From NCBI GenBank assembly GCA_947463785.1, contig CANHRG010000005.1, forward strand, positions 1 to 64,000: a stretch of 64,000 nt of DNA, written 5' to 3'. This document shows, piece by piece, positions 47,052 through 51,783 of the stretch. Each line of letters begins with the position of its first letter. The first letter of the stretch is position 1. The notes under the pieces were generated by a model. That model had not been told where the DNA came from. It did not search any database and saw only the letters and a program-made list of their open reading frames with translations. Made by a program: the position numbers and the translations under genes. Source of the stretch: Sphingobacteriaceae bacterium (GTDB lineage: Bacteria; Bacteroidota; Bacteroidia; Sphingobacteriales; Sphingobacteriaceae).

Positions 47052-48125
47052 TTAAATCAAATGGTTCCAGCCAAACGAATCAGGACTTAAACCGTATCTA
47101 ATTTCTTTGAGCGCTTGTAAAGCCTTATTCGAAAACTCTCTCGTTCCCGGATCGGGTAGCGTATAGGTTTCGCCTTCGTAGGTAATTTCAGCAATGTGTG
47201 CAATGGTTGCAGCGGTTCCGGCTCCGAAAGCATCTTGTAGAGTTCCGTTTTTAGCGGCCTCAATTACCTCGGTTACGGTTACCCGGCGCTCTTCGACGAG
47301 CATTCCCCAGGAGCGTGCTAAATCCAAAATACTATGACGGGTTACACCATCCAGAATGCTGTCGCGGGTAGAAGGGGTAATAAGCGTATTGTTAATCACA
47401 AACATCACGTTAGTAGTTCCCGATTCTTCAATATATGCATGTTCTTTTGCATCGGTCCAGATTAGTTGATCGTAGCCTTCTTGCTGAGCCAGTTTAGTTG
47501 GTAGCAAAGAGCTGGCATAATTACCCGCAGTTTTTGCATAACCTACACCGCCTTCGGCAGCACGGGTATAGTGCGTCTCAATTTTTACTTTTAAGGGTTT
47601 TGCATAGTAAACCCCAACCGGTCCAATCAAGATCACAAATTTATAGTTAGCGGATGCATGCACACCCAAAATTGGGTCGGTAGCAAACATTACCGGACGA
47701 ATGTAAAGCGAGTAACCTTCTTGTGCAGGTACCCAATCGCGGTCTAGCTCAATAAGTTGCTGCATGCCCTGCATGAAGATATCTTCTGGAACAATCGGCA
47801 TGGCCATGCGTTGAGCAGAAATGTTAAAGCGTTCCAGATTTTTATAAGGTCTGAAAATGCTGATTCGGCCATCTTGTTGTCGGTAAGCTTTGATACCTTC
47901 AAAAATAGCCTGACCATAATGCAAAGCAGATGCTGCCGGGCTAATTTCTATATTGCCGTAAGGTAGAATCTGGAAATTTTTCCATTCTCCATCTTCAAAG
48001 TCGGCAGTAAACATGTGATCAGAGAAAACACGTCCGAAAGGAAGGTTTTCGAAATCGGTAGCAGCCAAGCGAGATTGTGCGGTACGGCTTACTTTAATGT
48101 CTAAGGTATCTATCACGTTTTTCAC
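47052..48125 (-). CDS. ilvE: Branched-chain amino acid aminotransferase
   Basis: 357 residues of the class IV PLP family. The larger ilvE type found in Bacteroidota is seen: ALHYGQAIFEGIKAYR, GYSLYIRPVMFATD, GVGYAKTAGNYASSLLP with the PLP lysine, EESGTTNVMFVI and FGAGTAATI. It makes or uses branched-chain 2-oxo acids with glutamate. It appears monocistronic, followed by a terminator, with 57 bases to the next gene upstream. Confidence 0.96.
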   Translation of the reverse strand: MKNVIDTLDIKVSRTAQSRLAATDFENLPFGRVFSDHMFTADFEDGEWKNFQILPYGNIEISPAASALHYGQAIFEGIKAYRQQDGRISIFRPYKNLERFNISAQRMAMPIVPEDIFMQGMQQLIELDRDWVPAQEGYSLYIRPVMFATDPILGVHASANYKFVILIGPVGVYYAKPLKVKIETHYTRAAEGGVGYAKTAGNYASSLLPTKLAQQEGYDQLIWTDAKEHAYIEESGTTNVMFVINNTLITPSTRDSILDGVTRHSILDLARSWGMLVEERRVTVTEVIEAAKNGTLQDAFGAGTAATIAHIAEITYEGETYTLPDPGTREFSNKALQALKEIRYGLSPDSFGWNHLI

Positions 48126-48182
48126 AGAATTTTACTCTGCAAAAGTAGGTAAAATTACACGTTGAGACGAATGATTTTTTTG

Positions 48183-49139
48183 TTACGATGGTGTACGTAA
48201 TACACTTAAAACCCAGTTTTTACCCCAATTTTCAAGTTCTTCTTCGCTCCAGAGTTCGGGGTAAAAAATGCGCTTTTGAAAGCGTGGAGGCAGGTATTTT
48301 TGCCAGTTGGTTCCACCGGTAGCCTTAATTTCTTCCGGCTCACGATTGAGGTATCTGACGGCAGATTTGTAATGCGACAAAGGCCAGTTCACATTAACAT
48401 TTACATCCAGCTGACGTAGCTCGTTTTCTAAAGCCGATGTATCTGCTCCCTTTGTTTTTAATTGACTGAGTAGGAATCGGAAATTTTTAGTCTGACAGAA
48501 ACTGGCCAGCTCCAAAAACGTTTTTGAATACTTGTTTTCAAATTGTTTTAAAGTGAGTGTCTTCTTGCCAGTTGATAATTCGGTAGCACCGTGTTTCCAA
48601 TAAATGTGTTCAAATTGGGTTTCCAGATCGGCTTTGGCCAAATCGTCTCGTTTTTCTTTATCCACTAAGCGGATAAAATCTGTAGCGTAAATTTCGATCA
48701 TGCGGTATTGCCCAGATTGAAATCCGCTTGCCGGCAATAGCGACATTCTGAATTTGAGAAATTGATCTTTTTCCATACCCTGAACCATAATTTCGAACGA
48801 ATTGGTTAAGGCTTCAAAATAGCTGTTGATGCGTTTTACCCGTTGACCAAAAAATTCAGCATTCAAATCCGGATGCTCTGCAATTTGCTTGCACTCGTGT
48901 AAGGAAAGCTTAAAATAGAGCTCAGTAATTTGATGGTAGATGATGAAAATCTCTTCGTCGGGAAAGGAAGTTTTTGGGTTTTGCAGGCTCAGCAGGGTGT
49001 CCAGGTGGATGTAATCCCAATAGGTTAAAAAATCGGCATACAATAAACCGTCCAGATAGGAAACCATGTCTTGGCCCATGGCCGCGTACTTTTCCTGTAG
49101 TTGTTCTATCCGTTCTCTAATTTCAGGTGTTATTTCCAT
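48183..49139 (-). CDS. kynA: Tryptophan 2,3-dioxygenase
   Basis: 318 residues. The TDO family motifs are clear: YWDYIHLDTLLSLQ, FIIYHQITELYFKLSLHE, RMSLLPASGFQSGQYRMIE, heme-ligand His in WPLSHYKSAVRYL, and ATGGTNWQKYLPPRFQ (substrate loop). It opens the indole ring of Trp to give N-formylkynurenine. Next genes of the kynurenine pathway are not in the window. It lies 5 bases after the crcB stop, in a run of genes with little spacing (epimerase, serine fusion, crcB, kynA). Confidence 0.95.
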   Translation of the reverse strand: MEITPEIRERIEQLQEKYAAMGQDMVSYLDGLLYADFLTYWDYIHLDTLLSLQNPKTSFPDEEIFIIYHQITELYFKLSLHECKQIAEHPDLNAEFFGQRVKRINSYFEALTNSFEIMVQGMEKDQFLKFRMSLLPASGFQSGQYRMIEIYATDFIRLVDKEKRDDLAKADLETQFEHIYWKHGATELSTGKKTLTLKQFENKYSKTFLELASFCQTKNFRFLLSQLKTKGADTSALENELRQLDVNVNVNWPLSHYKSAVRYLNREPEEIKATGGTNWQKYLPPRFQKRIFYPELWSEEELENWGKNWVLSVLRTPS

Positions 49140-49144
49140 AGGTA

Positions 49145-49516
49145 TTAAATTAAACGTACCAGCCAGCTGCCCAAATATAAACCAGCCACGCTGAATACAA
49201 AATTGGCCACAATATTTCCGAACGCTAATGCCGAATGACTTTGTTTAAAAAGCTCAACCGTTTCTACGGTAAAGCTGGAATAGGTGCTGAAGCCCCCGCA
49301 AAAACCGGTGATGAGTAAGAGTTTAAGTGGATAACTGAGATTTATTTTTTCGACCCCCAGCATCAATACCATTCCAAAAACCAAACAGCTTAAGAAATTG
49401 GCACTTAGCGTGGCCCAAGGAAACAGACTGGTGCCCGCAGGATAAATTTTCCCGACTAAAAATCGGCACACACTGCCCAATCCGCCTCCCAAAAACACAA
49501 GCAAAAACTGTTTCAT
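49145..49516 (-). CDS. crcB: CrcB/Fluc fluoride channel
   Basis: 123 residues with four TM helices. GGGLGSVCRFLVGK, FLSCLVFG and GFCGGFSTYSSFTVETV are the typical Fluc motifs (sodium site and Phe box). It exports fluoride as a double-topology dimer. Only nine bases separate it from the upstream gene, so no fluoride riboswitch can fit; it is read from an operon promoter. Confidence 0.95.
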   Translation of the reverse strand: MKQFLLVFLGGGLGSVCRFLVGKIYPAGTSLFPWATLSANFLSCLVFGMVLMLGVEKINLSYPLKLLLITGFCGGFSTYSSFTVETVELFKQSHSALAFGNIVANFVFSVAGLYLGSWLVRLI

Positions 49517-49525
49517 TGACTCAAA

Positions 49526-50821
49526 TTAATACAATATCCGGAATTTAATGGTATGCTCAATTTGTTTGAGCGCTTTTAAAACCTGTTTGTCGTAATGGGT
49601 GCCCACATCGGTAATTACATAGCCAATTTTTGGGTTGGTCATTAGAAATTGGCCAAGAATATTGATCTGGTGTTGGGCAAATACCTGATTAATTTGCGCC
49701 ATAATGCCCGGTACGTTCTGGTGAATGTGAATTAAGCGATGTGCATAAGCGATTTTTGGCAATTGCAGGTTCGGAAAATTGCTACTCAAATAGGTATCGC
49801 CTTTATTGATGAAATCGGCCATACGCTTGGGGATAAAGCTGGAGTTTCTCGGCTTATTTTTTGGATCGTCGAACAGCACAATCCCCATTTCGGTACAAAT
49901 AGCTGCTGAAACCCTGTTTTGGCTGCTGCCCAACATGCCCAAAGTTTTTAATTTAACGGCTCTTTTCAGCTGTTCGTCCGAAACTTTTTCATCCCTAGCC
50001 AAGAGTAACATCCCTACGTCGGCTACGTATTTTTCTTCGAAACTGCTTTTGTGGCGAATAGAAAAACCATCTTTTTTCAGTATTTCCAAACTTTCTTTAG
50101 GAACATCGCCAATTGCTAAGCATAAAATGCGATTTTTTGGATAAGAAATGGCTCGAGGAAGCTGATTAACGTACAGGAATTCATCGAAACTTGGCGTTAC
50201 GTGGTCGGCTTTTGCCGAAACGGATTTACGCTCAATATTTTCGGTAAAGGCATAAAATTTTTTGATATGGCCAGATTCTTTCAACTGAAAATCAGAATGT
50301 CCATCGCCAATCCCAAACAGTTCGCCTTGTAAATCGAGTTGCTCAAGTAATTTCACTTTACCACCCTCAGTAGCCAAAGGATTTTGTTCATCAAATCCGA
50401 TAATTTTTCCTGCTTTATCAAACCGAAAAGTATTGGCGTAAATATTTTCTTTAAGGATGTGGTAAGGCATCACCACCGGAGTAATAAATTCTTTAAACCC
50501 GCCTGAAACAATCAGCACTTCTGCGGCATGTTTCTTAAAAAACAGCTTATTTCTGGAAAAAGAGGCAGAAACTTTTTTCTTTAAGCGGCTCACCAACAAA
50601 TCCAGGTGTTCACGGTTCGCATCTAGCAGTTGAACGCGTTTGTACAAACTCTCGTTGAATGAAAGTCGACCTTCCATGGCCGCATGAGTCAAATCTTCAA
50701 TTTGCTGAAAACGGTTTTCTCTATCGGGATGATTTTTTAGGGAGATACGTGCCAGCTCATCCAGCGCTTCTACTTGTGTAAACGTGCTGTCGAAATCGAT
50801 GATGTAAAAACGTGATTTCAT
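49526..50821 (-). CDS. Phosphoserine phosphatase fused to a SerA remnant with ACT domain
   Basis: 431 residues from ATG 50821 (MKSRFYIIDFDST), where the start overlaps the preceding stop by four bases. Residues about 1-215 are a SerB-type HAD phosphatase: DFDST (nucleophile Asp), VSGGF, and GIGDGHSDFQL (motif IV). Residues about 225-335 resemble the N-terminal substrate-binding part of SerA (GDVPKESLEILKKDG, LGMLGSSQNRV, GIVLFDDP). It then jumps straight to the SerA linker (DTYLSSNFPNLQLP) and ACT domain (HRLIHIHQNVPGIM to IKFRILY), with no NAD-binding domain. The ACT domain binds serine as inhibitor, so the phosphatase is probably under serine feedback. Confidence 0.88.
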   Translation of the reverse strand: MKSRFYIIDFDSTFTQVEALDELARISLKNHPDRENRFQQIEDLTHAAMEGRLSFNESLYKRVQLLDANREHLDLLVSRLKKKVSASFSRNKLFFKKHAAEVLIVSGGFKEFITPVVMPYHILKENIYANTFRFDKAGKIIGFDEQNPLATEGGKVKLLEQLDLQGELFGIGDGHSDFQLKESGHIKKFYAFTENIERKSVSAKADHVTPSFDEFLYVNQLPRAISYPKNRILCLAIGDVPKESLEILKKDGFSIRHKSSFEEKYVADVGMLLLARDEKVSDEQLKRAVKLKTLGMLGSSQNRVSAAICTEMGIVLFDDPKNKPRNSSFIPKRMADFINKGDTYLSSNFPNLQLPKIAYAHRLIHIHQNVPGIMAQINQVFAQHQINILGQFLMTNPKIGYVITDVGTHYDKQVLKALKQIEHTIKFRILY

Positions 50822-51783
50822 TTCAGAATGCGGCATATTTCGGCAATTTTAGGCCGAATGGGGGTAAACTCAATAGCTATAGATTTCTTAATTTTTTTGG
50901 TAGAAAATGCTGAATTTTTTGAGGCACTTCTGGCGGTTTCTTTGGTTAATCCAACCATTTTTCCGCTTAGTTTCCCAAGCCACCCCATTAGGCTGGCTGC
51001 AAGCAATAGTTGCCATTCTTGCACTTCTTTTTGAGGTTCTTTTACTCCAAATTGTCGGGCAATTTCTTGAAACAGGTCTTTGTACAGCCAGTTTTCGCCA
51101 TTAAGTACAAAACGTTCTGCGGTAATCTTACTGTCCATGAGTTTGATCATCGCGGTAGCTACATCTTCAACAGCTACCAAGCCACAGGAACCAGTTGGGT
51201 AGCGACTCAATCCGCGGTCAACCATACTGAATAAGCTGCCGCTGCCTTTCCACCCGCATTCCTTCCCGATGATGATAGACGGATTGACAATAACTGCATC
51301 CAGTCCTTCAGCAATGCCCCGCCATACTTCCATTTCGCTGAGGTGTTTAGACAAGGAATAAGAACTGGGTTTATTTACAGCTTCCCAAAGGGTATTCTCA
51401 TCAATCAGCTGTTTGTTTTTAGCTTCGCCCAAGGCAGCAACCGAGCTCACGTATACCAATCTAACCTGCGATTTTTCTAAACACAAATTCACCAGATTGG
51501 CGGTGCCGTCTACATTGGTTTCGAGCATCATGGCTTTATCTTTCTGCTGAAAAGAAATGGTGGCGGCGGTGTGGTAAACCTGTGTAATGCCTTCGAGTGC
51601 ATCCTCGAGAGAGAACATATCACATACATCTCCAATCACCCATTCAATAGTTTTATGATCTTGAAGAAAATCCGGAATCCGAGAATTTACTCTTTTCAAG
51701 GCACGCACTTTTAGGCCTTGTTCAACTAATTGCCGTGTTAAAACGGAGCCTAAAAAGCCTGTGGCGCCTGTAACTAAGATCAT
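50818..51783 (-). CDS. NAD(P)-dependent epimerase/dehydratase-family protein (extended SDR)
   Basis: 321 residues. N-terminal Rossmann motif ILVTGATGFLGSVLTRQL, then VYHTAATISF, YVSSVAALG, active-site SSYSLSKHLSEMEV (Tyr-x3-Lys) and VIVNPSIIIG. This resembles dihydroflavonol reductase-like or 3-beta-HSD-like extended SDRs. Substrate is unknown. It overlaps the next gene (fusion phosphatase) by four bases and shares its start region with the oppositely oriented arginase-like gene. Confidence 0.88.
   Translation of the reverse strand: MILVTGATGFLGSVLTRQLVEQGLKVRALKRVNSRIPDFLQDHKTIEWVIGDVCDMFSLEDALEGITQVYHTAATISFQQKDKAMMLETNVDGTANLVNLCLEKSQVRLVYVSSVAALGEAKNKQLIDENTLWEAVNKPSSYSLSKHLSEMEVWRGIAEGLDAVIVNPSIIIGKECGWKGSGSLFSMVDRGLSRYPTGSCGLVAVEDVATAMIKLMDSKITAERFVLNGENWLYKDLFQEIARQFGVKEPQKEVQEWQLLLAASLMGWLGKLSGKMVGLTKETARSASKNSAFSTKKIKKSIAIEFTPIRPKIAEICRILK

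What the first reader, a model, noticed from the sequence alone, without database searches (positions are those of the whole stretch)
49526..50821. SerB phosphatase fused to a SerA lacking its NAD-binding domain
After the HAD phosphatase the sequence follows SerA up to GIVLFDDP, where the NAD-binding domain should begin, then resumes at the SerA linker and ACT domain. The missing part is about 180 residues. The protein thus seems to have borrowed the serine-sensing half of SerA to control SerB. The pathway's last step would then carry feedback sensing in one chain.
Basis: partly seen in the sequence, partly recalled or inferred. Interest (0 to 1): 0.55.

Follow-up and report, generated by a model that had tools for sequence, protein, structure and literature searches.

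The report
Serine phosphatase with gutted SerA tail
In nearly all the sampled bacteria of one family, the last enzyme of serine making carries the leftover of the first enzyme: its cofactor-binding domain is gone but its serine-sensing part is kept, which suggests that feedback control has moved from the first step to the last.

Summary
The minus-strand ORF at 49526-50821 (431 aa) is a phosphoserine-phosphatase-like HAD domain, a SerA substrate-binding domain lacking its NAD-binding domain, and a SerA-type ACT domain. The interpretation needs correcting: SerB did not borrow half of SerA. Complete HAD-SerA fusions of about 630 aa occur in other Bacteroidota (23 of 345 phylum genomes); the short form is that fusion minus 192-193 residues at one fixed junction. 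It is family-wide: 141 of 151 sampled Sphingobacteriaceae have it. In 117 short rows eight phosphatase positions and three ACT serine-ligand positions are invariant, whereas the SerA substrate arginine is lost in all. A separate ACT-less SerA sits next to serC. A model superposes residues 233-436 on E. coli SerA at 1.7-1.9 A. Most likely: a phosphoserine phosphatase with a retained serine-sensing SerA module, moving feedback to the last step. Activity, serine response and oligomeric state are unmeasured. ACT-bearing, serine-sensing phosphatases are known, with N-terminal ACT domains: a new variant of a known kind.

The parts
49526..50821 (-). serB-serA(delta NAD): whole ORF, 431 aa, likely start ATG at 50821
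   Evidence: ATGA overlap with the upstream gene
50171..50812 (-). HAD-IB phosphoserine phosphatase domain (residues 9-222)
   Evidence: Asp14, Asp16, Glu23, Arg67, Ser111, Lys160, Asp178, Asp182 in 117 of 117 short rows; model superposes on human PSP, Z about 20
49844..50140 (-). SerA substrate-binding domain, first part (residues 233-331); catalytic Arg (E. coli Arg60) lost
49988..49999 (-). place of the SerA RSKT/RSRT substrate motif, here ARDE (residues 280-283)
   Evidence: the first position is Arg in 21 of 21 full-length rows, 0 of 117 short rows
49843..49844 (-). junction where 192-193 residues (NAD-binding domain) are absent
49745..49843 (-). last helix of the substrate-binding domain and linker (residues 332-364)
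49529..49744 (-). SerA-type ACT domain (residues 365-436)
   Evidence: lowest pN/pS of the segments compared in the genus
49661..49723 (-). stretch with the serine-ligand equivalents His372, Asn374 and Asn392 (E. coli His344, Asn346, Asn364)
   Evidence: 117 of 117 short, 21 of 21 full; ligand roles from PMC6300728 passages
50818..51783 (-). NAD-dependent epimerase-like gene directly upstream, overlapping by ATGA (gene name by my reading)
   Evidence: directly upstream on the same strand in 54 of 80 named loci

Best explanation
It is a phosphoserine phosphatase whose C-terminal part is the regulatory half of SerA. Shown by sequence: a complete HAD-SerA fusion exists in other Bacteroidota; here and across the Sphingobacteriaceae the NAD-binding domain, an insertion in the SerA substrate-binding domain, is missing at one fixed point; the SerA active site is gone; the phosphatase active site and the serine site of the ACT domain are strictly kept; a separate ACT-less SerA sits next to serC. 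Inferred: the short form arose by deletion from the full fusion, after the separate SerA had made the fused dehydrogenase redundant. Inferred mechanism: the chains pair through their ACT domains, two L-serines bind at that interface, and the substrate-domain/ACT unit, which in E. coli SerA moves relative to the NAD domain when serine binds, now moves relative to the phosphatase and lowers its activity. Feedback control would thus sit on the last, irreversible step.
For: Full fusions: 23 of 345 phylum genomes match in two pieces meeting at residues 331/332; 192-193 residues between, with NAD fingerprint and Arg240-, Glu269- and His292-type motifs in 21 of 21 held (Glu role recalled); 4 of 4 tested exceed the SerA model cut-off. 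Short form in 141 of 151 family genomes, one match each, and 91 of 91 in the order draw, all from the same family. Residue counts and domain identities: short-short HAD .77, substrate domain .56, ACT .73; short-full .52.26.59; full-full .56.68.66. The substrate domain has drifted while the ACT domain has not. pN/pS over 15 genus pairs: ACT .086, HAD .124, substrate domain .186 (synonymous sites near saturation). HAD tree groups the 30 short rows as one set (74/99). Model: residues 233-436 on E. coli SerA, 201-204 residues, 1.7-1.9 A, Z about 26. SerB model found once in this genome. Own SerA is Type III by domain content, a type described as not serine-regulated.
Against: No assay or ligand-bound structure. 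Bootstrap for one origin of the short form is only 74, and the tree cannot by itself tell deletion from insertion. SerB model score is below its curated cut-off (67.2 against 144.15 bits), though no genome of 32 passes it. Asn170 of canonical PSP (number recalled) is Ser in 117 of 117 short rows and Ser/Thr in full rows. Ten of 151 family genomes lack the protein and show no SerB-like HAD, yet 4 of 4 inspected keep serC-serA, so another phosphatase may exist. A histidine phosphatase occurs in this genome and in 5 of 6 inspected genomes that lack the fusion. AlphaFold has seen SerA structures in training. No gene context links it to serC or serA.
Confidence: 0.68

Rival explanations
1. The SerA remnant is only a dimerisation or stability scaffold; the phosphatase is not serine-regulated.
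For: Some PGDHs with ACT domains are serine-insensitive (PMC6300728 passage). The substrate domain has drifted.
Against: In the insensitive PGDHs the ligand residues are altered (same passage); here all three are invariant in 117 of 117, and the ACT domain has the lowest pN/pS of the segments compared.
Confidence: 0.16
2. The substrate-domain/ACT tail acts in trans: it docks on the separate ACT-less SerA and gives it serine control, as an AHAS small subunit does, with the phosphatase attached as a channelling partner.
For: Best Pfam ACT hit is the AHAS small-subunit type. The own SerA lacks an ACT domain. Both occur together in 16 of 20 family genomes checked (the other 4 have SerA alone).
Against: 4 of 4 checked genomes without the fusion keep SerA. 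In E. coli PGDH one dimer interface is at the NAD domain, which is the part that was lost here. The genes are not linked.
Confidence: 0.1
3. The HAD domain acts on another phosphoester (such as histidinol phosphate), with serine or another amino acid as regulator.
For: PSP-like HADs can be histidinol-phosphate phosphatases (PMC5764234 passages). SerB equivalog cut-off not reached. Asn170 replaced.
Against: Glu23, Arg67 and Lys160 equivalents of PSP are invariant. It was fused to SerA before the deletion. Only SerB-like hit in the genome. A Pedobacter able to make all 20 amino acids shows no serine gap in the GapMind table (PMC7311316 section 8 part 1), but whether this protein fills that step was not seen.
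Confidence: 0.06

Closest known systems
Mycobacterial SerB2 (ACT-ACT-PSP)
   Same: Phosphoserine phosphatase with ACT domains; feedback by L-serine through ACT interfaces and oligomer change is described (PMC10564941, passages).
   Different: There two ACT domains are N-terminal. Here one SerA-type ACT is C-terminal, joined by a SerA substrate-binding domain.
E. coli SerA (Type II PGDH)
   Same: Substrate-binding domain plus ACT; serine ligands His344, Asn346 and Asn364 kept; predicted fold superposes at 1.7-1.9 A.
   Different: NAD domain and catalytic residues absent; a phosphatase is fused at the N-terminus.
Full-length HAD-SerA fusion of Bacteroidota (about 630 aa)
   Same: Same domain order, 41-49% identity over about residues 8-331, same ACT.
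   Different: Keeps the NAD domain and the SerA active-site motifs, so presumably bifunctional.
AHAS regulatory subunit (IlvH/IlvN) ACT domain
   Same: Best Pfam model for the ACT part.
   Different: Only the ACT fold; ligand motif and sequence kinship are SerA's.

Membership tests
Phosphoserine phosphatase (SerB, HAD-IB) | HAD nucleophile and acid Asp pair, motif II Ser, Lys, acidic motif and PSP substrate residues Glu/Arg | tested here: met
   8 positions invariant in 117 of 117 short rows; motif names and numbers recalled
Phosphoserine phosphatase (SerB, HAD-IB) | TIGR00338 equivalog cut-off | tested here: not met
   67.2 against 144.15 bits; 0 of 32 Bacteroidota genomes pass it, so filed as PSP-like
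Phosphoserine phosphatase (SerB, HAD-IB) | hydrolyses O-phosphoserine | not testable with these tools
   needs an assay
SerA / PGDH Type II | NAD-binding domain with catalytic Arg, His and substrate Arg | tested here: not met
   192-193 residues absent; Arg60 equivalent lost in 117 of 117; model score 143.9 against 404
SerA / PGDH Type II | ACT domain with His344, Asn346, Asn364 serine ligands | tested here: met
SerA / PGDH Type II | substrate-binding domain and ACT fold and arrangement | tested here: met
   prediction only: 201-204 residues, 1.7-1.9 A
ACT-regulated phosphatase like SerB2 | L-serine lowers phosphatase activity | not testable with these tools
   needs kinetics with and without L-serine
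ACT-regulated phosphatase like SerB2 | two N-terminal ACT domains | tested here: not met
   single C-terminal ACT

The most novel reading that the evidence does not exclude
A whole bacterial family has moved serine feedback from the first to the last enzyme of the pathway by cutting the cofactor domain out of a fused first enzyme, turning a dehydrogenase into an allosteric module for the phosphatase beside it; the module may in addition control the separate SerA in trans.
Probability: 0.45. Interest if true: 0.68.

Novelty: new variant of a known kind. Interest (0 to 1): 0.5.

Why it matters
If true, it is a clear natural case in which an enzyme was turned into a regulator by loss of one inserted domain. 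Three states are still visible in living lineages: full fusion without a close relative of this genome's ACT-less SerA, full fusion with one, and gutted fusion with one. It would explain how the Sphingobacteriaceae can control serine synthesis with an ACT-less SerA, and it gives a ready-made design in which the E. coli SerA serine switch is attached to a different enzyme, testable with known point mutations.

Tried and rejected
Assembly or local deletion artefact: rejected, same junction in 117 rows. Recent pseudogene: rejected, no stop inside the match in 140 of 141 family genomes (G115 shows one TAA, not followed) and pN/pS well under 1. Plasmid-borne origin: no plasmid record covers 80% of the query (0 of 108 records with a match). 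Independent borrowing of a SerA half: disfavoured by the full fusions with the same order. Synteny with the full fusions: none of the window's other ten neighbour genes tested was found near them in 18 of 18 stretches, so orthology rests on sequence alone. In the HAD tree the HAD-only rows did not form one outgroup, so the root is unsure; two of the HAD-only genomes (G371, G429) fell inside the full-fusion rows, which I did not resolve. Literature: searches surfaced no paper describing this fusion or its short form; I read passages or a section of five papers (PMC6300728, PMC7311316, PMC5764234, PMC10564941, PMC9026213), the rest only as listings, and supplements could not be opened. A dimer model was not available.

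Full report
What is there. The minus-strand ORF at 49526-50821 encodes 431 residues; its ATG overlaps the stop of an upstream epimerase-like gene as ATGA. Numbers below are those of P0001, which starts five residues earlier. Pfam, NCBIfam and the PDB sequences agree on three parts: HAD-IB phosphatase (best solved relatives are phosphoserine phosphatases), the first part of the SerA substrate-binding domain, and the SerA C-terminus with an ACT domain.

How widespread. One match per genome in 141 of 151 sampled genomes of the family, 63-88% identical outside the window's own genome, in all but one case (G084, 100-436) over nearly the full length; 91 of 91 in the order draw, all of which were the same family. 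The family is Sphingobacteriaceae by the titles of the 80 named loci (Pedobacter, Mucilaginibacter, Sphingobacterium, Parapedobacter, Arcticibacter, Olivibacter and MAGs). The closest named ones are MAGs (Sphingobacteriales and Sphingobacteriaceae bacteria) that I take to be from lakes or reservoirs.

Where it comes from. In the phylum draw (345 genomes, 182 with any match), 23 genomes outside the family carry a 627-687-residue frame that matches in two pieces, about 8-331 and 332-436. I held 21 of these 23 in an alignment. Between the pieces lie 192 (10 rows) or 193 (11 rows) residues, with a GxGxxG-type motif, N-x-x-RG, PHxGGST and DVxPxEP in all 21. Four of four tested exceed the SerA equivalog cut-off (626-661 against 404 bits) and match the serB model over the N-terminal part. 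So a complete SerB-SerA fusion exists, and the short form is that fusion minus the NAD domain. In a HAD-domain tree of 56 rows the 30 short rows fall on one side of a branch (74/99), including L041 from G412, another family, which sits inside the family's rows (97/91) and has different gene neighbours, suggesting transfer. The root is unsure, so deletion rather than insertion rests on parsimony: the remnant is SerA on both sides of the junction, and the SerA motif is dead only in the short form.

What was kept and what was lost. Of 117 short rows (109 distinct), all keep eight phosphatase positions and all keep His372, Asn374 and Asn392. A review gives the E. coli equivalents His344, Asn346 and Asn364' as the L-serine ligands (PMC6300728, passages). 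The equivalent of E. coli Arg60, which binds substrate, is Arg in 21 of 21 full rows and in 0 of 117 short rows; Lys141, Arg240 and His292 lie in the missing part. Mean identities show a drifted substrate domain but a conserved ACT. Within the genus pN/pS is lowest in the ACT domain (.086; the 33-residue linker has .100, HAD .124, substrate domain .186), with synonymous sites near saturation.

Fold. AlphaFold2 with 79 sequences gave mean pLDDT 84, with block means of 83-95 from residue 241 to 330. Residues 233-436 superpose on E. coli, Brucella and yeast SerA over 201-204 residues at 1.7-1.9 A, Z 25.5-26.2; the HAD part superposes on human and Francisella phosphoserine phosphatases, Z about 20. 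The substrate-domain/ACT unit therefore keeps the SerA arrangement with the inserted NAD domain cleanly gone. Templates were not used, but such folds are in the training set.

Pathway context. The genome (99.5% complete) has serC followed by a 316-residue SerA without ACT. This SerA occurs at 68-86% identity in 19 of 19 other family genomes examined. The other 14 have nothing closer than 40%, the best hit often being the fusion itself. Three of three f4 genomes inspected have it next to serC. This fits an order of events: fusion, second SerA, loss of the fused dehydrogenase. ACT-less Type III PGDHs are described as not serine-regulated. PF01842 gives three hits in the genome, of which only this one is SerA-like by P0001's own search.

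Against my reading. Nothing was assayed. The serB cut-off is not met here or in any of 32 genomes. Ten of 151 family genomes lack the protein; in those ten the serB model finds nothing (6) or only weak partial matches in long frames (4), yet four of four inspected keep adjacent serC-serA, so either serine is taken up or another phosphatase exists. A histidine phosphatase is present in this genome and in five of the six fusion-less genomes searched. The gene is not near serC or serA; it directly follows the epimerase-like gene in 54 of 80 loci.

Mechanism and verdict. Review passages say that serine binding in E. coli SerA rotates the substrate-domain/ACT unit relative to the NAD domain. The protein keeps exactly that unit, now attached to a phosphatase. 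My best reading is serine feedback on the last step, as in mycobacterial SerB2 but with a different, SerA-derived sensor at the other end of the chain. Anatomy, family-wide conservation and derivation are well supported; serine control is inferred. No paper describing it was found in nine searches.

Noticed in passing
L195-L198 (G014, G036, G027, G122): Ten of 151 family genomes, mostly small ones, lack the fusion and any clear SerB-like HAD, yet four of four inspected keep adjacent serC and ACT-less serA: SerA and SerC without a recognised SerB.
   Followed up: partly
L041 / L159, L158 (G412): A genome of another family carries the short fusion nested in Sphingobacteriaceae rows, with different neighbours, beside a serC-serA pair whose SerA is a 389-aa ACT type: probable transfer.
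   Followed up: partly
L148, L149 (G371, G429): Free-standing HADs 46-48% identical to the fused one fall inside the full-fusion rows of the tree, perhaps fission products or the source of the fusion.
   Followed up: no
L077: Record titled Flavobacteriaceae bacterium PS02338 has the Sphingobacteriaceae short form and gene order; the title is probably wrong.
   Followed up: no
window 47052-51783: Conserved minus-strand run: epimerase-like gene, this fusion, often crcB, tryptophan 2,3-dioxygenase-like and ilvE-like genes (found in 60, 80, 6, 39 and 46 of 80 loci; gene names by my reading).
   Followed up: partly
L180 (G335): One full-fusion genome also has a separate 498-aa frame with the best serB match of that search (101.7 bits).
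   Followed up: no
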